33,113 nt of DNA from Phocaeicola coprophilus (GTDB lineage: Bacteria; Bacteroidota; Bacteroidia; Bacteroidales; Bacteroidaceae). The notes under the pieces were generated by a model that was not told the origin of the DNA, did no database searches, and saw only the letters and a program-made list of their open reading frames with translations. The translations under genes and the position numbers were made by a program. Below are positions 1 through 9,075 of this stretch, in pieces (positions within the stretch are counted from its first letter, which is position 1; each line of letters begins with the position of its first letter). Location of the stretch: positions 1-33,113 of the forward strand of contig JACJJM010000034.1 in the NCBI GenBank assembly GCA_016900015.1, written 5' to 3'.

Positions 1-1659
1 CGTTCCGGAAGGAAGATAATTCTCTGACTTGCTTGCCGCACGCTGAAGCTCTTCATGGCTCTGCGCTTGCGACAGCAACAGTTCGCCCGTTTCCACCACA
101 CGGCCTTGCGAGTCATACTGCGAATAGCTCCAGCGGTTCGGATTGTCGGCGCGTTCCTCGCCGTCCTGGCTCAACACCATGCGGTCGCGGCTGTCATAAA
201 CCATGTAAATAGGCGCACAGCCGGGAAGACGTTTCAGCGTCATCCGCTTGCGGGCATCGTATGCGTAATTGTATGCCAGGCGTTCCAGCACGTCGCTGTC
301 CGTTGTCGAATCGAGCTGTGCGCTCGCTTCGGGAGAAAGCACCCAGCGGAGCAGGCCGCGGTCGTCATACACCTTGTAAGTCTCCAGGCGGGTGCTGCCG
401 TCGGTCTGGACGGACAACACCTCCCGGTCTTGGTTGTCCGTGTATGTGATGCTTGTATGCCCGTCCTCGTCCGTCGTGCGCACGGTTTGCAGCGTGCCTG
501 CGGCATAATAGCCGAGTTGCGCCAGCGTGCCGTCGTCCGCCACTTCGTAGCAACGCACTTCATCCGCGGCATTCAGGCCGTAAGCCGTCGTCACGCCTTT
601 GCCTTGCGTATGCCATGCTCGTCCTTCTCCCATTCGTTTCACGACACGGTTCAGAGGGGACGCCTCGTAATCGGTTTGGGCGAAAGCGTAAGCAGCCTCG
701 GATTCGCCGTAGACATTCTGCCAGTTGGAAGCGGAATATGCGTCCGCATACAGTTCGCCTTGTTCACAGCTTGCAGCATAAGCTTGATAAGCATAACCCG
801 TCGACAGCCAACCGTCATAACGGAAAGGGGTGACAAGATCATATCCGGACAGAGGAGAACCCGAAATTTCGATACACTGCAACGGACGACCAAAACCATC
901 CATATAATTCATGACAACATTGCATGAATCGTCGGACGCTCCTGTAAAAATGCTATCTACACGAAAACTGTAATCCGTATTGTAACGATTGACACAAACC
1001 TCCCCAAGCATACGTCTGCGTTCTTCCTCGTTCCACCCTTCCACGTGGTAAAGACCTGCATCGTGCACTTCAAACGAAAGTTTTCCACCGGTGCCTTCAC
1101 TGGTAGCATATAACACACTGTCACGGTATAAATCATAGTGTACACGTTCATTCGAACCTGACAATTCCAGAGTCACACTGCCACTTGGACGCAAATAACG
1201 TTGCCCGCTGGAAAATTCATATTCCTGAACTTCATAACGTCCATGCTGAACCACTTCTAACATACTAGGATGCCCCAGATAAAAAGCCTCGAATAAAAAT
1301 GAACGGGAATGAGAGGTCTCATTCAATTTCACATGAAATATGACATCCCCGATATATGGGCTCTCTCTCTGAATGTTGCCTGTCGTCTGTACAGAAAGCC
1401 AATCAACAGGTTTGTTCATATGGTGAGCATTATACCTAATGATATGATTCCGAAACAAGGAGACTACATTGCCTGAATGAACCGCATGCTCTATATCACC
1501 CTTATATTGCCCTTCCACATGTATGGAAAATAACTGAGCCTTATAATCCAACTCGATTGTAGGCGGATTCTTCGACAAGTCTATCCATTCTAATTGTTGG
1601 GCAAAAACCGTAAACGGACAAAGCAATAGCAATACTATACAATAAATTAACTTCTTCAT
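1..1659 (-). CDS. RHS/YD-repeat secreted protein, DUF6443-like, 3' end beyond window
   Basis: An uninterrupted minus-strand frame runs 553 codons from ATG at 1659 to the window edge, so the C-terminus is missing. It opens with a signal peptide (MKKLIYCIVLLLLCPFTVFA, then QQ), implying export. Around residues 245-290 it has the stretch NYMDGFGRPLQ followed by FRYDGWLSTGY. Further on come YEASPLNRVVKR and repeated Y-D/tyrosine-rich elements, typical of the N-terminal half of Bacteroidota RHS proteins annotated as DUF6443. The start lies 7 nt after the stop of the preceding gene, so the two are almost certainly cotranscribed. The last 600 bases towards the left edge are visibly more GC-rich than the first 1000, as if core and N-terminus had different histories. 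In this family a variable C-terminal tip, often a toxin, would lie beyond the edge; that part is inference. Confidence 0.85.
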   Translation of the reverse strand, partial: MKKLIYCIVLLLLCPFTVFAQQLEWIDLSKNPPTIELDYKAQLFSIHVEGQYKGDIEHAVHSGNVVSLFRNHIIRYNAHHMNKPVDWLSVQTTGNIQRESPYIGDVIFHVKLNETSHSRSFLFEAFYLGHPSMLEVVQHGRYEVQEYEFSSGQRYLRPSGSVTLELSGSNERVHYDLYRDSVLYATSEGTGGKLSFEVHDAGLYHVEGWNEEERRRMLGEVCVNRYNTDYSFRVDSIFTGASDDSCNVVMNYMDGFGRPLQCIEISGSPLSGYDLVTPFRYDGWLSTGYAYQAYAASCEQGELYADAYSASNWQNVYGESEAAYAFAQTDYEASPLNRVVKRMGEGRAWHTQGKGVTTAYGLNAADEVRCYEVADDGTLAQLGYYAAGTLQTVRTTDEDGHTSITYTDNQDREVLSVQTDGSTRLETYKVYDDRGLLRWVLSPEASAQLDSTTDSDVLERLAYNYAYDARKRMTLKRLPGCAPIYMVYDSRDRMVLSQDGEERADNPNRWSYSQYDSQGRVVETGELLLSQAQSHEELQRAASKSENYLPSGT

Positions 1660-1666
1660 AATCTTA

Positions 1667-3352
1667 TTATCTTTTATCTATTTGTTTAACATTAAAAAAA
1701 TGGGAACTTATACGTTTCCCTGTGATGTCTTTCACTTCCATGACACGACATGCGCGATCATAATCATAAATTTCTCCATGTCCCTCTCCATCAAACCTCG
1801 CATAAACCGTTCCGTCAGCATTATAACTGGTTGCCTCAAAAGAAGTTCCCAATGGCATGACAGCCATGTAATTGACGAACGCACCACATAAAATGGTCAG
1901 ACGGGAGGGAGATGGACAGGCTGACAAATCCAGCACCAACCAATGCAACCGCTCGCTATTAGTTGGATGATAATCTATCGTGCCGGTGGTCACCGTTCCG
2001 TCAGCACACTCCAACACGTAGCTTGTCCCCAATAGTCCTAATTGCATATCTCTGAAAGAAGAATGTGACAACACAGCTATCAACAAACGGCCATCTGCCG
2101 GCAAATGCTCCAGATAAAGAGTATCTTTGCGAATAAGCAGCGTGTCATCATACGATAAACTATCAATCAAATTTTCCACCTGCCGGCGATGGTCTATGGC
2201 CGCAACTTCATTAAAATGCGCTGAATTGGATTGGAATATCTTATGCTCTCCTAAAGCATCATAGACAAAAGATTCTACGTTATTGCCAACACGGGCTTCC
2301 ACCGTCCTATAACCACCATATTGCTTTTGATGCACGTATCTGATAGTCTGCAACGGCGTATTCAAGCTATCCACATACAGTTCAACTGAATCCAACATAA
2401 GCGGTTCTTGAGTATTCCCTTGAGGAAAACCATAATGGAATATCCGCTTCTCCTGCAATCGTCCGTTAAAATAAGAAGATTCCACAAGCGGATAATTCCT
2501 CAGATTCCTCTCCTTTGCAGCCTCATACTTCTGAGACACCGTAGAAAGGCCCATAGTCACATAGGTGGTTTGAGTACATAAAGTATCGCCACGGGAATCT
2601 ATCTGAATTGTTCGCGTCGGCAAAAAAGTTTCATCCGGTGCTTCATAATAATAAAGCTGCTGACGGTAGGGCATATCTTTAGAAAAAACCTCCAAGTCTG
2701 ATACTGATGGAACAGGAACCATGACATCTGAGAAATGATATTCACGCAAACCACACAACACAGGCTTTCCGCCATAATAAAGCAGATAAGAACCACCCGA
2801 GTTTTTGCCTTTTGGCAGGTGAGGGGCAATGTTGGGCAAATAGTAATCGCGATATGGTTCAAACGATCCCAGCACAGGCATATAAACCGGATTCAGCCCT
2901 TTATAATAACTTTCCAAAGCCTGTTCGTCCACAGCATACTCATCCGCCTCTACTTGCAGCAAGGACTTGTCCGCCAGAAATGGAACTCTCTTATCTTCCA
3001 TAGAATAATCATAACAGAAGAGTTGTAACAGATGCCCGTCCGACGAATAGGATGCTTTTCCTTGAATGACACCATTCATCCGATAATCCACCACACCGGG
3101 CATCGCTGCAAACCAGTAAGCATTCCATCCCCGATGAGGAAGCTCTTCGAGCACAAAAGGATAATACACACCGTTGTTCCCTGTATTGGCAAGAGGACAA
3201 CCTTTCATCTTTCCAAGCGACCTGCGTATCTTGTCCATACTGTTTTTACATGTTATTAAGGCTTCATACTCCAACGTTTCAAATATTTGTACTCCCTTTT
3301 CCGGATAATGATAACGAATCGTATCGGCATACGTATCATCAGACAGTACCAT
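1667..3352 (-). CDS. C-terminal half of frameshifted RHS-like surface protein
   Basis: This 561-codon frame continues the protein begun at 5028 but sits one base out of frame with it. Its first residues, MVLSDDTYADTIRYHYPEKG, read as the natural continuation of the upstream frame's YYPQGGFRIK, so the ATG at 3352 is probably internal to an ancestral gene rather than an independent start. It has no signal peptide of its own. It carries beta-rich, tyrosine-rich sequence ending in a YD-like segment (YARFDGEGHGEIYDYDRACRV). It ends 7 nt before the next RHS gene. If translated alone, for example by coupling through the overlap with the upstream frame, the product would stay in the cytoplasm. More likely it is made by frameshifting or is part of a disrupted gene. 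Confidence 0.75.
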   Translation of the reverse strand: MVLSDDTYADTIRYHYPEKGVQIFETLEYEALITCKNSMDKIRRSLGKMKGCPLANTGNNGVYYPFVLEELPHRGWNAYWFAAMPGVVDYRMNGVIQGKASYSSDGHLLQLFCYDYSMEDKRVPFLADKSLLQVEADEYAVDEQALESYYKGLNPVYMPVLGSFEPYRDYYLPNIAPHLPKGKNSGGSYLLYYGGKPVLCGLREYHFSDVMVPVPSVSDLEVFSKDMPYRQQLYYYEAPDETFLPTRTIQIDSRGDTLCTQTTYVTMGLSTVSQKYEAAKERNLRNYPLVESSYFNGRLQEKRIFHYGFPQGNTQEPLMLDSVELYVDSLNTPLQTIRYVHQKQYGGYRTVEARVGNNVESFVYDALGEHKIFQSNSAHFNEVAAIDHRRQVENLIDSLSYDDTLLIRKDTLYLEHLPADGRLLIAVLSHSSFRDMQLGLLGTSYVLECADGTVTTGTIDYHPTNSERLHWLVLDLSACPSPSRLTILCGAFVNYMAVMPLGTSFEATSYNADGTVYARFDGEGHGEIYDYDRACRVMEVKDITGKRISSHFFNVKQIDKR

Positions 3353-5028
3353 TTTATGCGAAATCCACCCTGCGGATAATAAGTCGGAGTTTGCACAGTA
3401 TTAGGTTCATAAACCAAATGAATGTATCCTCCATTAGATAAACGTATGCATTGCAATGTTCCATTGGTCATACACTCGGGAGAAATGCCAGGATCAAAGA
3501 AATTCAACTCCCCGTTCATTTGTTTCGCATACCCCCACCAGTCATGCCCATTAGCCGGTTCTGAATAATAAGAAAATCTCAAATGAGAAACCTCTTCATT
3601 GTCTTTGCCTAAAAAGCCTACACGAGAAAGCGTCTTATCAGATGAGAAACAAACTGATGAAACCTGTCTTTTCAATGCATCCAAGAGTGTTATTCGCTCA
3701 AGTTTGTTATTCCAATAAGAAAAAACAATTTCCCGGTCTCCGCATACGATGGATTGCAAACAAGGTGTACTAATCTGATAAGAACAACCTTGGTTCGTTA
3801 TTTTCTTGTCCAACAGCTCCACTTCTCGAATACAAGTTTCCAAAATTCCTTTTGCCCCTTTCAAATAAGACCGGATTAAATACCCATTAGGCAAAGTCCT
3901 ATTGTCAAACGATTTGTAATAAGTTATTGTCCGTTCCAGATTCATATACATTTCATACCAGCATTCAGCCAAACGAGAAGGATTCGACAACATACCCATG
4001 ATCTGAAACTCATTTCGAGCAAACCATGACATATCGGTCCATTGCGGCCTGAGCCATCGCTCCATATATTGTTCCATCGTTCCTCTCGAAGCTTCAAAAT
4101 CATATAAACTCGTAGGAATATCTACCAAAAAGACCGAAGCTTGAATTTCTGCTTTAGCAAGATTTATATAACGATTGAATTCAGGTTCGTATTTTCCAAA
4201 ATCAAAAGAACGGTCAGCAACAGAATTTCCATATTGATAATAGACCAAAGAATAGCTGTTAAACTCATCATCTAGGGGCTTGGATGCATAACGGAACTCT
4301 ATAGGCCGCTCATGGACTGGCTCAATACGAGTCATGTACCAAGAAGAACGATAGGCCTGATGACGTATGCCATTAAAACTGACCGGGCCATCCTCACGCA
4401 CTTGCTGTAAAACTTCGAATTCACCATAGATATATCGGTTTCCCAATTCATCCGTAATAATCCAGCCGTCAATACTGTTTATATCGCCCAGTGGCTCAAT
4501 CTTCACAGAATTGTCTTCTAACGAATATGCACTGATTTTATTGTGCAAGGAATCATAACGTATAATAAACGGCACACTCCGATTCGCAAATACTGCCGTA
4601 AAGAGATCCGACTCCCCATCCCAGATGCGCCGGTCTACGTCCTTGACAAACTGTTCCTCATCTATCAACGCTCCTGCACGCTCTGCATGTATAAAACCTT
4701 TTGAAGGAAATTCATCTGCAATTCCACCGCGCACCGTGCGTGTCACCACACCGCCAGTGTTAAGCGTCCAGTTATAACCTAACAGACCGGGCCGATCGTC
4801 CACACGGACGCCACGGGCCGTATAGTCCAGCGTGATGGGAAGTTCGTAATCTCCCGATTTCAATGTGTAAACGGGAACATGGTAGTGGAACGTACCTGTG
4901 GCATAGTCCACCGTCACGTTTTTGCTTTCAAGCATACCCTGTGCCTGTTGACCGGGTTTAAAATTCTGACCGCAAACCAAGGTTATACAACACAAGCATA
5001 TTATCAATGTGCAAAGTATCTTTTTCAT
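3256..5028 (-). CDS. N-terminal half of RHS-like secreted surface protein (frameshifted)
   Basis: This 590-codon frame starts with a signal peptide (MKKILCTLIICLCCITLVCG). Residues about 30-90 then match the well-known Bacteroidota RHS-associated N-terminal pattern: ATGTFHYHVPVYTL, then LPITLDYTARGVRVDD, then GLLGYNWTLNTGGVVTRTVRG. In other members this is the module before YD repeats. The true frame ends near residue 559, where a one-base shift occurs. The remaining residues of this frame (WYCLMIRMPIRF to the TAA at 3256) have a random composition unlike the rest. Joined to the next frame it would make a protein of about 1,120 residues. It is the first gene of the leftward RHS operon and has a candidate promoter at about 5300. 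Role in adhesion, contact or toxin delivery is inferred from the family. Confidence 0.8.
   Translation of the reverse strand: MKKILCTLIICLCCITLVCGQNFKPGQQAQGMLESKNVTVDYATGTFHYHVPVYTLKSGDYELPITLDYTARGVRVDDRPGLLGYNWTLNTGGVVTRTVRGGIADEFPSKGFIHAERAGALIDEEQFVKDVDRRIWDGESDLFTAVFANRSVPFIIRYDSLHNKISAYSLEDNSVKIEPLGDINSIDGWIITDELGNRYIYGEFEVLQQVREDGPVSFNGIRHQAYRSSWYMTRIEPVHERPIEFRYASKPLDDEFNSYSLVYYQYGNSVADRSFDFGKYEPEFNRYINLAKAEIQASVFLVDIPTSLYDFEASRGTMEQYMERWLRPQWTDMSWFARNEFQIMGMLSNPSRLAECWYEMYMNLERTITYYKSFDNRTLPNGYLIRSYLKGAKGILETCIREVELLDKKITNQGCSYQISTPCLQSIVCGDREIVFSYWNNKLERITLLDALKRQVSSVCFSSDKTLSRVGFLGKDNEEVSHLRFSYYSEPANGHDWWGYAKQMNGELNFFDPGISPECMTNGTLQCIRLSNGGYIHLVYEPNTVQTPTYYPQGGFRIKWYCLMIRMPIRFVIIIRKREYKYLKRWSMKP
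3349..3360 (-). other. frameshift junction (ATA AAA TGG) inside RHS-like gene
   Basis: On the minus strand the codons CGC ATA AAA TGG carry a run of four A (3355-3352). One extra A would give CGC ATA AAA ATG GTA and join the two reading frames without loss. A one-base backward slip of a Lys-tRNA on AAA would do the same, because it can re-pair perfectly. The run is short for a phase-variable tract, so a mutation or a sequencing error is at least as likely. Confidence 0.6.
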
Positions 5029-5072
5029 TTCTTTTGTTTTTAAATGTTCATAATAGGGTATAGTCCGGACAA

Positions 5073-5192
5073 GACAGGCTGTTTGCCAACCTGTCCGAAC
5101 AGAATAATTTATTTGTATGTCAATAGGAAAAGGGCGTCCAGACGGGCGCCACGTCTGGATTGTCCCTTAAAAGAGTTACGGATGTCATCCGT
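5073..5192 (-). other. structured 5' leader of the RHS operon (three hairpins)
   Basis: Between the candidate promoter near 5300 and the ATG at 5028 there are three clean inverted repeats. GACAGG/CCTGTC lies at 5073-5078 and 5090-5095. TCCAGACG/CGTCTGGA lies at 5137-5144 and 5152-5159. ACGGAT/ATCCGT lies at 5178-5183 and 5187-5192. Read on the minus strand the middle hairpin is followed a few bases later by a short T run, so attenuation is possible. No known riboswitch class is recognised. Confidence 0.45.
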
Positions 5193-5295
5193 GTCCGAAC
5201 GACGCTTCCCTGATATGTTTTTTCGGTTTTCTCATGTTCTTAGTTATAATTGATTAGTTAGACATTTTAATTCTCATCTCCCCGGGAAAACATTG

Positions 5296-5330
5296 CAAAG
5301 ATATGCGGGTGAAAAAACATGTGCAACAAA
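5296..5330 (-). promoter_or_regulatory. candidate promoter of the RHS operon
   Basis: On the minus strand TATCTTTG (5303 to 5296) matches the Bacteroidota -7 consensus TAnnTTTG and is followed by CAATG. A TTTG at 5330-5327 lies 23 bases upstream, slightly longer than the usual 19-21. It would start transcription about 260 bases before the ATG at 5028. Confidence 0.5.
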
Positions 5331-5448
5331 AAAACAGCGTTTGCGTTCACAAAACGTTAACCAAAGAACAGATACAGCACAGGCTCGAACAAGATTCGTG
5401 TATATACAAAACCTGTCCGAGCCTGCGCCTTTTAAACATGGTGTATTA

Positions 5449-5640
5449 TTATTCCAGCCAAGCCATAATCTTCTCTATCAAACGCCACAGCAACACCAAA
5501 GGGCCACCTATTGCCCCGAAAGCCAATAGCCCCAAAATATTATAACCGATTTCATGAGGATCATAATCATCGTCTTCGTAAATGCGAAAACCATGTTTTG
5601 CCATAAACTTATGAACGAACTCACCTAATATATAAAACAT
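5449..5640 (-). CDS. small single-span membrane protein, candidate immunity protein (copy A)
   Basis: This is a 63-residue protein. Its acidic N-terminal half has FMAKHGFRIY followed by DDYDPH, and its C-terminal half is one hydrophobic segment (IGYNILGLLAFGAIGGPLVLLW) ending in RLIEKIMAWLE. It is about 80% identical to the product of 5981-6169, and the last 22 residues are the same. The start is firm because the ATG at 5640 lies one base after the stop of the tip relic, which places it as a coupled downstream gene. Two near-identical small membrane proteins, each placed directly behind an RHS tip end, suggest immunity against a membrane-acting toxin. That function is inferred from context only. 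No database family is recognised. Confidence 0.7.
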   Translation of the reverse strand: MFYILGEFVHKFMAKHGFRIYEDDDYDPHEIGYNILGLLAFGAIGGPLVLLWRLIEKIMAWLE

Positions 5641-5641
5641 A

Positions 5642-5806
5642 CTATTCGTTATCGTTTTCTATTACATTATTTAGATAATTAGCCCCTTTTATTAATTTGC
5701 CAGGCCTCTTCATTGTTTTTACATTATTCTCAAAAACCCGACGTTTTCCCTGAAACATGTTCCGGCGCTGCGGCACAGGAATTATTTCACGGTTGGCATT
5801 CAGTTC
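5642..5806 (-). pseudogene. relic of an RHS C-terminal tip tail
   Basis: From 5800 leftward the minus strand reads NANREIIPVPQRRNMFQGKR, closely matching the intact tip at 6325-6237 (NANREMIPTPQRRDMFQGKR). It then diverges into a different tail ending VIENDNE and a TAG at 5644-5642. An in-frame TGA at 5809-5807 closes the frame upstream, so only the last 50 or so codons remain. It is the 3' stub of a second tip gene left by tandem duplication or recombination, directly upstream of small membrane gene A. Confidence 0.7.
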
Positions 5807-5828
5807 TCATCTCCCCGGGAAAACATTG

Positions 5829-5836
5829 CAAAGGTA
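5829..5836 (-). promoter_or_regulatory. duplicated -7 box driving tip relic and small gene A
   Basis: TACCTTTG on the minus strand fits TAnnTTTG and occupies the same place in the right repeat copy as TATCTTTG does in the left copy. No convincing -33 element is seen, so activity is uncertain. It would transcribe the relic and the small gene at 5640. Confidence 0.4.
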
Positions 5837-5980
5837 TGCGGGTGAAAAAACATGCGCTAGAAAAAAGTAGCGGTTGCATTCACAATACGTTAACCAAGAA
5901 ACAGAAACAACACAGGCTCGAACATAATCTGTGTATAGACAAAACCTGTCCGAGCCTGCACCTTTTAAATATGGTGTATA

Positions 5981-6169
5981 TTATTCCAACCAAGCCATAA
6001 TCTTCTCAATCAAACGCCACAACAACACCAAAGGGCCACCTATTGCCCCGATTGCCAATAATCCGATAACTCTATAGCCTATCGGGTGAGGATCATAATC
6101 ATCTTTATCATAAATCCTAAAACCATGCTTGGCCATAAACCAATGTGTTAATCTACCTAATGGATACAT
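5981..6169 (-). CDS. small single-span membrane protein, candidate immunity protein (copy B)
   Basis: This 62-residue protein starts MYPLGRLTHWFMAKHGFRIY. It has the DDYDPH motif and the same transmembrane C-terminus as copy A (GAIGGPLVLLWRLIEKIMAW). Its ATG at 6169 lies inside the last codons of the orphan RHS tip gene, a 17-base overlap in another frame. That implies cotranscription and translational coupling with the tip, the usual arrangement of a toxin and its immunity gene. The two copies differ mainly in the first 12 residues and around the middle, next to where the tip tails also differ. The immunity role is inference. Confidence 0.7.
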   Translation of the reverse strand: MYPLGRLTHWFMAKHGFRIYDKDDYDPHPIGYRVIGLLAIGAIGGPLVLLWRLIEKIMAWLE

Positions 6170-7427
6170 CGTCTTTTTCTTCCTTTATAGCTTTAATTAC
6201 ATCAATCGACTTATAAATATGTTCATGCGTTTCCATCATTTTAACATTATTCTCAAAAACCCGACGTTTTCCCTGAAACATGTCCCGACGCTGAGGCGTA
6301 GGAATCATTTCACGGTTGGCATTCCTAAACTTGAACCATGCCCCCGGATCAGTGGCGCGCAGCAAAGGAGATGCTACACGGGACATATTGCCCGAAAGAA
6401 CATCAATAAAACTTTCCATGCGTTCATCCGACGTAGCTGTATGCCCTGCCCAAGTATGCCCGGTCAGAAGCACTTTTGGGCTGTTAACTGCTGAATACAG
6501 CATATTGCCTACAAATTTGTCACCCACATCAAGCCAGCTTTCCGAAGGGCGATTCAGATACAGCTCGAAGAAAGCTGCCGAACCCGCCTTCACGGGCTGA
6601 AGCATTGCATAACTTCCTGTGTATTGCCACTGCCAAAACTCGTCGTCCGACAAACGCACCCGATTCCCATTGCCATAATCCACATACGTCTGGAGGCCGA
6701 AAAACGTGTTGTGAAACCACGTGTTCTTCCGTGTTTCCTTGTAGCTGCCATCCGGATTATAGACAACCTGCATCTCACCCGTCGGGTCTACATACCTTAT
6801 CGGGTTGTTCTGGCAATAGGCATAATCCGAATGCCCGTAGTCTACTTCCGACAGCGGGTCCGGCGTAAGCCAACGGCCCAAACCGGCATCATACATGCGC
6901 GCCCCAAAATCATAGACCTCGCTTTCCGGCCAGTCTTGGCGTTCTTTCCCGGCAAACAAGCGGCGGTTGCCTGTTTCTTCCGCCCCCTCGTGCGGCTGTT
7001 CCGTGCCCAAAGGGTAGTAGTCATGACGTTCCACCACCTTTCCTTCTTCGTCTATCAACGCGCGGACGCTGCCCAGTTGGTCGGTCAGGGCGTAGCGCAC
7101 GCCGTCTTTCGTAAACCATACGTCGCCCACAACGGCATGGTCGAATTCACGCTTTCCGTCAGTGACTTTGTAAACAACGCTACCCACATAGTCATAACCG
7201 TTCTTACCACTGCCATCGCGAACATCCAACAAAGTTCCATCTGCCAAATAATGGTAGCACAGCAGGAGCGAATCGCCCCGCCACACTTTCTCCAACAAAT
7301 TTAAACGATTGTAGGCAAACGACAAACCTTTCCGGCGGTCTTTTGTCAGATTTCCGTTGGCATTGCATTCATAATTTCCACCCAGACCACATATTCGACG
7401 AAAAAAGTAATGGTCCGTCCATCCCAA
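6153..7427 (-). CDS. orphan RHS core with C-terminal tip (candidate toxin), N-terminus absent
   Basis: This 424-residue frame begins abruptly (MGWTDHYFFRR) and by residue 20 is in the RHS core (YECNANGNLTKD). It continues through DQLGSVRALIDEEG (116-129) and ends the core with YDFGARMYDAGLGRWLTPDP (172-191) and NPIRYVDPTG (208-217), the hallmark RHS-associated boundary. The following ~207 residues are a variable tip with no toxin motif I recognise. It has no signal peptide and no YD-repeat shell. It is therefore either a silent donor cassette for recombination onto a full RHS gene or the surviving 3' end of a deleted paralogue. The small membrane gene overlaps its stop. Base composition drops from core to tip, as is common in RHS genes. 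The start codon is uncertain. Confidence 0.75.
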   Translation of the reverse strand: MGWTDHYFFRRICGLGGNYECNANGNLTKDRRKGLSFAYNRLNLLEKVWRGDSLLLCYHYLADGTLLDVRDGSGKNGYDYVGSVVYKVTDGKREFDHAVVGDVWFTKDGVRYALTDQLGSVRALIDEEGKVVERHDYYPLGTEQPHEGAEETGNRRLFAGKERQDWPESEVYDFGARMYDAGLGRWLTPDPLSEVDYGHSDYAYCQNNPIRYVDPTGEMQVVYNPDGSYKETRKNTWFHNTFFGLQTYVDYGNGNRVRLSDDEFWQWQYTGSYAMLQPVKAGSAAFFELYLNRPSESWLDVGDKFVGNMLYSAVNSPKVLLTGHTWAGHTATSDERMESFIDVLSGNMSRVASPLLRATDPGAWFKFRNANREMIPTPQRRDMFQGKRRVFENNVKMMETHEHIYKSIDVIKAIKEEKDDVSIR

Positions 7428-7460: not shown

Positions 7461-7558
7461 AAGCGGATAGGAAACTAGCCGAGAGCCGAAAGGAAGGTAG
7501 CCGACCACGGATAGGAATCCGTGCGAGAGCGGAAAGGAAGCTTGGCGCGGCTAGCTTT
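7461..7558. repeat. dispersed intergenic repeat, locus 1
   Basis: This segment has GCGGATAGGA, GAAAGGAAGGTAGCC and GTAGCCGACCACGGA, shared with the gap at 11181-11251 and, in reverse or partial form, with 21758-21843 and 28489-28570. It lies between two divergent genes and encodes nothing obvious. Confidence 0.6.
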
Positions 7559-7602
7559 AAGAGACTGCCTAACATATTCAGTACAAACAAATTGAACCGA
7601 TT

Positions 7603-9075
7603 ATGCCAGAAATAAAAAACTTTCAACATCTTTTGCTGCTTGCCTGCCTCGTTGCCGGACTCCGGCCTGCGCAGGCACAGACAGGAGAAGGATTCCCGCC
7701 CGACACGGTCACGGCCGTCATGGACTACCGGAACATGCTACAACAGCTGGGCATCCGCCTACCCGACCTCCCCTCTGTCGACGACGACCCGTCACGTCCC
7801 GCCCATATCCACCCGGCTAACCCGGGCGAACGCGGGGCCTGGCTCTGGTGGAGCGACGCGGACTACCGCCCCGGCGACACGCTGCGCTACCAAGTGACAC
7901 GTTCGCCCTTCGGCCTCTGGATGAACTACGACGAGAGTCCCTCCCGCGAGGGGGGCTATCCCCCTATTGACCCACTGGCCGACGCCGCCGGGGGACCGGT
8001 GCTGACACCGGACGACTGGTGGCAGCGTGCCCGTCCCCAATGGCAGGCCTTGTGCGAAGAGTCCGTATGGGGACTGCGCCCGGCCGCGGCCGACAGCCTG
8101 CACATCGAGTGGACACAGACGGACGCAGGCCCGGTCGAGGGATTCCCCGGCTACCGTGCCTACGTCGTCGAGGGACGCATCGACACGTCGCGCCATCCAT
8201 CCCTCCGCCACCAGCCTGTCATCCATGCCCGTCTCTATGTGCCGGACGACGCGCAAGGCGTGCCCCTCATCATCCAGCTGGCCTGGATGAAGGAAGGCGT
8301 GCCGACGGCCTATCTGGAGCCATGTGCCGCCCGTGGGTGGGCATTCCTCCAGATGGATCCGACACGCCTGCAACCTGACGACGGCGCCCACCTGACCAAC
8401 TATCTCATCGGCTTGTGCAACGGGGGACGCTGGCGCCGCCCGTCTGACTGGGGCACGCTCTCTGCCTGGGGTTGGGGAGCAAGCCGCCTGGCAGACTTCT
8501 TCGAGGGAGACCCGCGCATCGACTCCCGCCGCGTCGGCCTCGCCGGACACTCGCGCTACGGGAAATCGGCCCTGGCAGCCATGGCCCTCGACGGACGCTT
8601 CTCGCTCGCCTACCTGAGCTGTTCAGGCATGGCCGGCATGTCACCCATGCGCCGTCACTACGGCGAGGACTTCGAGAGCCTCGGCTGGGACCGCCTGCAT
8701 CATTGGCTCGCGGGTGCGGCCATGCGCTGGTGCGGCCCGCTCGTGCCTGGCCGGCAACTTCCCCGCCGGGTGCTTGCCTTGCCCGTCGACGCGCAAGTGA
8801 TGGTCGCCCTCTGCGCACCGCGTCCGCTGTTCATCGCCACGGGCCATGCCGACACCTGGTCCGACCCCGTAGGTTCCTATCTCACCTGTCTCCGCGTCTC
8901 CCCGGTCTACCACTTGCTCGGCACAGCAGGTTTCCAAGACTGCGGCGAGCGCCTGCCCGCCGTGGACAAGCTTTATGGCGACGGCCCCTTGGCCTATCGC
9001 ATGCACCGCGGCGACCATACAGACGTCATCGACTGGCCCCTGTTCGTGGAGTGGGCAGCGAAGTGGTGGGAATAA
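7603..9075 (+). CDS. CE15-type glucuronoyl esterase, secreted
   Basis: This 490-residue protein has a signal peptide (about 1-26, ending PAQAQ). It shows alpha/beta-hydrolase features of bacterial carbohydrate esterase family 15. The nucleophile motif GHSRYGKSAL has Ser317 followed by Arg, and CAPRPLFIATG leads to DTWSDPVGSYL. The C-terminal RGDHTDVIDW supplies the catalytic His. CE15 enzymes cleave the ester between glucuronic acid on xylan and lignin alcohols, freeing plant cell-wall polymers. Activity on that substrate here is inferred from the family. No SusC/D pair or glycoside hydrolase lies beside it, so it does not sit in a recognisable polysaccharide utilisation locus. Its GC content is clearly higher than that of flanking genes, with heavy GCC/CGC/CTG use, suggesting transfer or a different expression class. 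Confidence 0.75.
   Translation: MPEIKNFQHLLLLACLVAGLRPAQAQTGEGFPPDTVTAVMDYRNMLQQLGIRLPDLPSVDDDPSRPAHIHPANPGERGAWLWWSDADYRPGDTLRYQVTRSPFGLWMNYDESPSREGGYPPIDPLADAAGGPVLTPDDWWQRARPQWQALCEESVWGLRPAAADSLHIEWTQTDAGPVEGFPGYRAYVVEGRIDTSRHPSLRHQPVIHARLYVPDDAQGVPLIIQLAWMKEGVPTAYLEPCAARGWAFLQMDPTRLQPDDGAHLTNYLIGLCNGGRWRRPSDWGTLSAWGWGASRLADFFEGDPRIDSRRVGLAGHSRYGKSALAAMALDGRFSLAYLSCSGMAGMSPMRRHYGEDFESLGWDRLHHWLAGAAMRWCGPLVPGRQLPRRVLALPVDAQVMVALCAPRPLFIATGHADTWSDPVGSYLTCLRVSPVYHLLGTAGFQDCGERLPAVDKLYGDGPLAYRMHRGDHTDVIDWPLFVEWAAKWWE

What the first reader, a model, noticed from the sequence alone, without database searches (positions are those of the whole stretch)
5272..7427. RHS tip and small membrane gene duplicated as a module
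Two tandem copies (5272-5800 and 5804-6325) each hold the tail of an RHS C-terminal tip, a directly coupled 62-63-residue membrane protein and a -7 promoter box. Only the right copy keeps a long tip gene. The tip tails diverge completely after a shared stretch of about 28 residues (NANRE to ENNVK). The small proteins differ mostly near their N-termini and are identical at their C-termini. This is what repeated swapping of toxin ends with their immunity genes would leave. The small protein would be an unusual, single-span membrane immunity protein, which points to an envelope-acting toxin.
Basis: partly seen in the sequence, partly recalled or inferred. Interest (0 to 1): 0.8.

Follow-up and report, generated by a model that had tools for sequence, protein, structure and literature searches.

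The report
Duplicated toxin-tail and membrane-immunity module
A gut-type bacterium carries two tandem copies of a unit holding the end of a probable antibacterial toxin and a tiny single-span membrane protein that may protect the cell from it; the few distant relatives of the toxin that were found each sit beside a small membrane protein of this kind.

Summary
The repeat is real: 5266-5801 and 5799-6324 match in blocks of 79-88% identity. On the minus strand each unit holds an RHS-tip tail, a 62/63-codon gene for a single-span membrane protein, a stable hairpin and a TAnnTTTG box. The right unit is attached to a 5'-truncated RHS tip (7427-6153); the left keeps about 52 codons of tail. No library names the small protein or the tip. 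Comparison supports toxin plus immunity: relatives of the tip in five other genomes (four lineages) are each followed directly by a 53-66-aa single-span membrane gene, against 0 of 10 other RHS tips. Two of those relatives are LysM proteins, one scanned and found to have a Bfe1-like T6SS-effector N-terminus, and their small genes form arrays of 5 and 2. Orphan relatives of that small protein lie at six places without a tip; in three of these, known immunity genes (PoNi, Imm5) and a tyrosine recombinase lie in the same array (rAID-like). The module is most likely a polymorphic-toxin/immunity pair acting at the envelope, with its immunity part tandemly duplicated. 'Repeated swapping' is not shown. 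Toxicity and protection are untested, and homology between the window's small proteins and the others is weak.

The parts
6153..7427 (-). 5'-truncated RHS fragment with tip: RHS core at residues 137-217, tip at residues 218-424; no signal peptide by eye, so an orphan tip
   Evidence: TIGR03696 E 1.5e-17; own-genome RHS matches start at residue 16 or later; in-frame stop upstream
6381..6575 (-). About 65-aa conserved domain of the tip (P-S ... Y-S ... N-S-P ... T-G-x-T ... F-I-D), shared with RHS tips and LysM proteins elsewhere
6240..6323 (-). Tip tail shared with the left copy (28 aa, 25 identical)
6153..6239 (-). Divergent end of the tip, right copy
5981..6169 (-). Small single-span membrane protein R (62 aa), putative immunity protein; overlaps the tip's end by 17 nt
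5913..5958 (-). Stable hairpin just after gene R (z -6.0), terminator-like but without a clear T run
5829..5836 (-). TACCTTTG, -7-like box upstream of the left tail and gene L
   Evidence: consensus recalled
5717..5800 (-). Left copy: shared 28-aa tip tail without the rest of the tip
5642..5716 (-). Left copy: divergent end of the tail; its stop lies one base before gene L
5449..5640 (-). Small single-span membrane protein L (63 aa), 79% identical to R, putative orphan immunity protein
5380..5425 (-). Hairpin after gene L (z -5.2)
5296..5303 (-). TATCTTTG, -7-like box, left copy; next gene downstream is the RHS operon at 5028
   Evidence: consensus recalled
3256..5028 (-). N-terminal part of the following RHS-type gene, with a signal-peptide-like start (by eye)
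   Evidence: no family above cut-off
1..1659 (-). DUF6443 RHS-type protein, cut by the contig end
   Evidence: PF20041 E 5.9e-29

Best explanation
The locus is a displaced polymorphic-toxin cassette whose immunity part was tandemly duplicated. The 424-aa ORF is the broken-off end of an RHS toxin. Its tip belongs to a family that acts at the cell envelope of competing bacteria, most likely at the inner membrane (inferred). The 62/63-aa proteins are its immunity proteins: an N-terminal amphipathic helix, a polar linker and one C-terminal membrane span. By charge they would lie N-in/C-out in the inner membrane and would block the toxin there, as membrane immunity proteins do for pore-forming bacteriocins (analogy recalled). 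The duplication copied tail + immunity gene + hairpin + promoter-like box, leaving an orphan immunity gene with its own possible promoter. One contiguous stretch then diverged most: the last ~25 codons of the tip and the first ~12 codons of the immunity gene. That would be expected if these two ends set the specificity of toxin-immunity recognition. Shown: duplication, truncation, mosaic divergence, co-occurrence of tip family and single-span gene in the loci found, T6SS-effector-like fusion, orphan relatives in immunity arrays. Inferred: toxicity, protection, target, orientation, promoter function. My estimate for pore formation or depolarisation specifically is about 0.4.
For: Duplication and mosaic. 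The small genes look constrained (pN 0.16, pS 0.42 overall; last 20 codons pN 0, pS 0.23; first 12 codons pN 0.36, pS 0.34). Tip relatives: G289 full-length RHS protein, 44% identical tip; G656, another family of the order; G746; G322 and G300. Each is followed directly by one or more 53-66-aa single-span genes (for G322 and G746 counting from a later start than the longest ORF). Control: of 10 RHS tips without the domain, 9 have a neighbour of 120-229 aa and 1 has no neighbouring ORF of 45 aa or more within 250 nt; a domain pattern (fitted to these tips) found it only in the six domain tips among the 11 loci checked. The G322 protein carries LysM (E 5.8e-13) and a Bfe1-family-like N-terminus (E 6.4e-14 over residues 1-84, 52 bits against a full-length cut-off of 315); G300's near-identical protein lies 2.8 kb from a TssD/Hcp gene. 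The G322 tandem unit also carries the last ~11 codons of its toxin. Orphan relatives of the G322-type protein lie with PoNi or Imm5 genes and, 3.4-6.2 kb upstream, a tyrosine recombinase at 3 of 6 places. In this genome six of six other complete RHS tips are followed by proteins with signal-peptide-like starts (by eye), so this RHS repertoire probably acts outside the cytoplasm.
Against: No toxic or protective activity was tested. Profile comparison of the window's small proteins with the G322 type is weak: P 0.058 with 7 rows, P 0.0019 and probability 14% after 4 more relatives were added. With the G289/G656/G746 type it is not significant (P 0.13), nor is that type against the G322 type (P 0.18). 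The shared motif was noticed post hoc. The tip family is rare, so the co-occurrence rests on four lineages besides the window. The window's tip is truncated and may never be made. The conserved ~65-aa domain could be a pre-toxin linker rather than the toxin. The tip model failed (pLDDT 40).
Confidence: 0.72

Rival explanations
1. The small protein is not immunity but part of the attack: a membrane-active peptide or a membrane anchor/export helper for the tip.
For: It is short, membrane-spanning and directly coupled to the tip.
Against: Relatives of the G322-type protein occur without a tip at six places, three of them in arrays with PoNi or Imm5, and are multiplied in tandem behind one toxin. 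Both fit immunity better than a toxin or helper.
Confidence: 0.12
2. RHS debris: the truncated tip and both small genes are decaying remnants with no current function.
For: The tip lacks the RHS N-terminal part, and the left copy has only a tail; other RHS genes with other tips exist in the genome. In G322 one of the five small genes itself looks frameshifted.
Against: Both small genes of the window are intact and look constrained, with the last 20 codons identical in protein despite synonymous change; hairpin and box are kept in both copies.
Confidence: 0.12
3. Repeated replacement of tip and immunity ends by recombination, rather than tandem duplication followed by divergence. This concerns the origin and can hold together with the immunity reading.
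For: A contiguous low-identity stretch (~0.5-0.6) lies between blocks of about 0.9 identity, and synonymous divergence differs along the gene, as a recombination mosaic would give.
Against: No donor sequence was found in the own genome or in the samples searched. G322 shows a similar tail-plus-gene repeat in a tandem array.
Confidence: 0.35

Closest known systems
RHS polymorphic toxins with orphan tip/immunity cassettes
   Same: RHS core (TIGR03696), variable C-terminal tip, coupled neighbour gene, truncated orphan cassette next to an RHS operon
   Different: The tip family is in none of the libraries searched; the neighbour is a ~60-aa single-span protein; the duplicated unit carries only the end of the tip
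Bacteroidales T6SS effectors of the Bfe1 family (NF053698)
   Same: In G322 the same tip domain follows a Bfe1-like N-terminus plus LysM; in the near-identical G300 protein's locus a TssD gene is close
   Different: Only the first ~84 residues match, far below the full-length cut-off; the window's version is an RHS tip
rAID orphan-immunity clusters of Bacteroidales
   Same: Relatives of the G322-type small protein sit in co-oriented low-GC gene arrays, three of them with PoNi or Imm5 and a tyrosine recombinase upstream
   Different: These genes are 63-79 codons, below the ~100-300 codons given in PMC12247911 (passage); the window's copies are not in such a cluster
Polyimmunity loci (Zhang et al. 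2012, PMC3482391, passages)
   Same: Tandem immunity genes in one orientation
   Different: Here toxin tails lie between the copies

Membership tests
Polymorphic toxin (RHS class) tip | RHS repeat-associated core directly before a variable C-terminal domain | tested here: met
   TIGR03696 at residues 137-217, E 1.5e-17
Polymorphic toxin (RHS class) tip | Export signal and full RHS shell in the same protein | tested here: not met
   The window ORF is 5'-truncated. The relative G289 is a 1191-aa protein with DUF6443 and a signal-like start by eye
Polymorphic toxin (RHS class) tip | The same tip domain occurs on different delivery backbones | tested here: met
   RHS in window, G289, G656, G746; LysM protein with Bfe1-like N-terminus in G322 (scanned) and its near-identical G300 counterpart
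Polymorphic toxin (RHS class) tip | Toxic activity | not testable with these tools
   needs expression assays
Immunity protein | Gene directly downstream of the toxin across lineages | tested here: met
   six of six loci found, including the window and counting G322 and G300 apart; 0 of 10 other RHS tips have such a neighbour
Immunity protein | Sequence homology of the small proteins across those lineages | tested here: inconclusive
   P 0.058 then 0.0019 (window vs G322 type), 0.13, 0.18
Immunity protein | Neutralises its toxin | not testable with these tools
   needs co-expression
rAID cluster (for the orphan relatives, not the window) | Tyrosine recombinase upstream of co-oriented low-GC genes | tested here: met
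   Met at 3 of 6 places: L090, L091, L093, Phage_integrase E 5.9e-39 or better. In L092 and L094 no ORF was flagged by a crude motif; the sixth place was not examined for it
rAID cluster (for the orphan relatives, not the window) | Conserved intergenic motif | not tested
   similar out-of-frame peptides recur between genes (seen), not analysed
VasX/Bte2 pore-forming toxins | MIX domain, large helical region with transmembrane segments, C-terminal Ig-like domain (description from PMC12718326 passages) | tested here: inconclusive
   no Pfam match in the tip and no strongly hydrophobic segment (best 19-residue hydropathy 0.74), but that paper states such relatives are missed by sequence methods

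The most novel reading that the evidence does not exclude
A previously unnamed family of membrane-acting antibacterial toxin domains, carried alike by exported RHS proteins and T6SS effectors, is countered by a family of ~60-residue single-span immunity proteins. These multiply as tandem [toxin-tail + immunity] units and are captured as orphans in recombinase-associated defence arrays. Recognition specificity lies in the last ~25 residues of the toxin and the N-terminal helix of the immunity protein.
Probability: 0.45. Interest if true: 0.65.

Novelty: new member of a known kind. Interest (0 to 1): 0.5.

Why it matters
Membrane immunity proteins of 53-66 residues are easily missed by gene calling and by immunity-gene surveys, and here they pair with one toxin domain on two kinds of delivery protein. 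If confirmed, this would add an unrecognised toxin-immunity family to competition among gut Bacteroidales. It would also give a small system in which recognition specificity can be mapped, because the two copies differ mainly in one contiguous stretch.

Tried and rejected
Names from libraries: Pfam, NCBIfam, PHROGs and PADLOC give nothing credible for the small proteins, and nothing credible but the RHS core for the tip. Solved structures: only chance-level matches. The genome-contig scans with the window's small proteins and with its tip confirmed no relative. The viral-contig scans with the tip profile A6 and the G322-type profile A5 confirmed none. Phages were searched with small protein R only (none), plasmids with the tip and with the G322 tip (one E 0.3 match judged chance). 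The tip fold was too poor to search. An Rfam match to mir-105 in the hairpin is far below that family's score and taken as chance. The G127 match lies inside a 582-aa frame and was rejected. The G943 match (a CoaE-like protein by eye) and the G223 match (reading frame) were rejected. Not inspected: G004, G375, G259, G224, the other five weak rows, and the rows at E 4.5e-5 and above. Bte2/VasX was considered and set aside on size and hydropathy, not excluded. The hairpin-and-box region has only two full copies in the own genome, both here. In the control one 57-aa hydrophobic ORF was listed 234 nt after a control tip; it lies inside the 175-aa neighbour in another frame and was not counted.
Full report
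What is there. On the minus strand the order is: a 5'-truncated RHS fragment with tip (7427-6153, 424 aa); small gene R (6169-5981, 62 aa); a tip tail without the rest of the tip (from about 5803 to its stop at 5642); small gene L (5640-5449, 63 aa); then an RHS operon (5028-3256, 3352-1667, 1659-1, cut by the contig end). The window is the whole of contig C182. Direct repeats pair 5266-5801 with 5799-6324 at 79-88% identity.

Pattern of divergence. Along the aligned units the shared tail is 77/84 nt identical (25 of 28 residues). Identity then drops to about 0.5-0.6 over the last ~25 codons of the tail and the first ~10 codons of the small gene, recovers to 0.8-0.87, drops again to 0.63-0.73 around left-copy 5578-5519, and is 0.93-0.97 over the last third of the small gene. 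The region after the gene is 156/176 identical. In the small gene pN/pS is 0.16/0.42 overall, 0.36/0.34 in the first 12 codons and 0/0.23 in the last 20. So both genes look constrained, with a free or diversified N-terminal end; the numbers are small and give no proof of positive selection. Each gene is followed by a hairpin of -27.7 or -28.8 kcal/mol (z -5.2 and -6.0) and a TAnnTTTG octamer. The Bacteroides -7 consensus is recalled; 26 such octamers occur in the window, so promoter activity is inferred only from position and conservation. The hairpin-plus-box region has two full copies in the genome, both here.

Small proteins. Each has one hydrophobic stretch (best 19-residue hydropathy 1.89 and 1.83 at 34-52). 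The two-sequence model has helices 4-15 and 30-62 at mean pLDDT 72. More K+R lies before the span (5 and 3) than after (1 and 2), which suggests N-in (rule recalled).

Where relatives of the tip occur. Samples: 399 family genomes with the single tip (8 with E<=0.01: own, G289, G322, G300 accepted; G223 rejected; G004, G375, G259 not inspected); 251 family genomes with a profile at E<=0.001 (own only); 344 of the order (own and G656); 61 of G322's genus (4 matched: G322, G300, G746 accepted; G224 weak with stops, not inspected); 178 of the phylum (own plus six weak rows, of which G943 was inspected and rejected). The samples overlap and are drawn evenly from larger groups. The family is rare. 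The shared part is a ~65-aa domain with invariant residues E5, L8, P11, K21, Y28, S29, N32, S33, P34, G40, T42, G45, E52, F57 and D59 among the five sequences (G746 was found later and has NSI for NSP). I see no obvious catalytic set, which is a judgement and not a test.

Neighbours of those tips. G289: 53-aa gene overlapping the tip's end by 4 nt. G746: 64-aa ORF overlapping by 38 nt (a later start would give 57 aa). G656: 65-aa gene 7 nt downstream (coordinates; the script missed this tip because its RHS pattern did not match). G322: five tandem single-span ORFs, of which the first is 77 aa from its longest start or 63 aa from a later one, and one (7754-7915) is read only from an internal start and looks frameshifted; G300: two of 63 aa. 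Hydropathy was measured for one protein of each of these loci except G300, and for one orphan, and gave one strong span each. Control: one search found 13 RHS tips in nine loci; the 3 with the domain (window, G289, G746) have 53-64-aa neighbours; of the other 10, nine have neighbours of 120-229 aa and one has none of 45 aa or more within 250 nt. Leaving out the window and counting G322/G300 once, that is 4 of 4 lineages against 0 of 10 (one-sided exact P = 1/1001, computed by hand; two of the four come from outside). Tips were grouped by homology to the window's tip, not by neighbour.

Delivery. The G322 protein is 312 aa with LysM (E 5.8e-13), and its first 84 residues match the Bfe1-family T6SS-effector model (E 6.4e-14, 52 bits against a cut-off of 315, so a shared N-terminus only). 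The G300 protein was not scanned but is nearly identical along its length; near it lie a TssD gene (E 8.2e-19) and a CHAP-domain gene. This moves the domain from 'RHS tip of unknown function' to 'probable interbacterial effector domain'. A table in PMC7604300 (passages) lists Bfe1/Bfi1 of B. fragilis 638R as an effector-immunity pair.

Orphan relatives. A profile of the G322-type small protein (A2) searched in 301 family genomes gives 55 genomes at E<=0.1, but only 8 places in 5 genomes are strong (E<=1.7e-15); 2 are the G300 pair behind the toxin and 6 have no tip among the ORFs read around them. In four of the six arrays 10 proteins were scanned: 3 are immunity families above cut-off (PoNi in G244 and G256, Imm5 in G149), one SUKH-3 and one DUF6320 match are below cut-off, one is DUF7691, four match nothing. 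A Pfam-confirmed tyrosine recombinase lies co-oriented and 3.4-6.2 kb upstream of the small gene in the same three genomes; in the other two extended loci (L092, L094) none was flagged by a crude motif, and the sixth was not extended. This fits the definition of rAID systems in PMC12247911 (passages) for three of six places. These relatives are of the G322 type; the window type itself was found only in this genome.

Are the small proteins one family? Profile comparison gives P 0.058 (window vs G322 type, 7 rows) and P 0.0019 over 53 columns after four relatives were added, 0.13 (window vs G289 type) and 0.18 (G289 type vs G322 type). All four alignments include the same N-terminal stretch, [LI]-G-x-[FLYTV]-x-x-[WK]. 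A motif written after seeing this occurs in all nine sequences tested and in 0.1-0.6% of shuffles per sequence; because it was fitted to these sequences, that is only suggestive. Common descent is plausible but not shown; shared position and architecture are shown.

Tandem units. In G322 two of the small genes are preceded by the same ~11-codon copy of the toxin's end, one real and one orphan. So duplication of [toxin end + small gene] occurred there too, with a shorter tail. This makes tandem duplication of the immunity part the simpler reading of the window; recombination of the divergent stretch remains possible.

How it probably works. The RHS shell, or a T6SS, delivers the domain to the envelope of a neighbour. 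LysM and the secreted character (by eye) of the other RHS neighbours in this genome point to the periplasm (inferred). The domain attacks at the inner membrane (inferred from membrane-embedded neighbours in all lineages found). The single-span protein binds and blocks it in the membrane. An extra divergent copy would widen or shift protection, as orphan immunity genes do (PMC12247911, passages).

Novelty. Among the rows listed by the literature searches (12-15 rows each, 7) no title or opening of an abstract describes this pair. I saw the abstract and passages of PMC12718326 and passages of PMC7604300, PMC3482391, PMC4714493 and PMC12247911; nothing else was read. PMC4714493 (passages) already predicts undescribed transmembrane effector and immunity families in B. 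fragilis T6SS loci, so the kind is known. The library lacks most subscription papers, so absence from print is not claimed.

Noticed in passing
window 7461-7561: A short dispersed repeat just upstream of the truncated tip: 39 other places listed in the own genome at 76-92% identity (only 40 of 187 candidates were scored).
   Followed up: no
window 3256-3352: The RHS-type gene 5028-3256 and the ORF 3352-1667 overlap in different frames as if one gene were frameshifted; left as it is.
   Followed up: no
L024-L028 (own contigs C211, C208, C215, C206, C185): Small contigs carry RHS tips resembling HExxH metalloproteases, a JAB peptidase and an L,D-transpeptidase (labels recalled, from motifs by eye); the complete ones are followed by genes with signal-peptide-like starts.
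   Followed up: partly
window 5060-5110: A third strong hairpin (z -5.2) just upstream of the RHS operon, with GGACAGG in its stem like those after the small genes.
   Followed up: no
L065, L066, L068: 65-79-codon single-span genes inside rAID-like arrays, shorter than the gene sizes given for rAID, so surveys may miss them.
   Followed up: partly
L088 66-2432: One RHS tip (G746) with no neighbouring ORF of 20 aa or more starting within the next 700 nt, so a tip without an obvious immunity gene.
   Followed up: no
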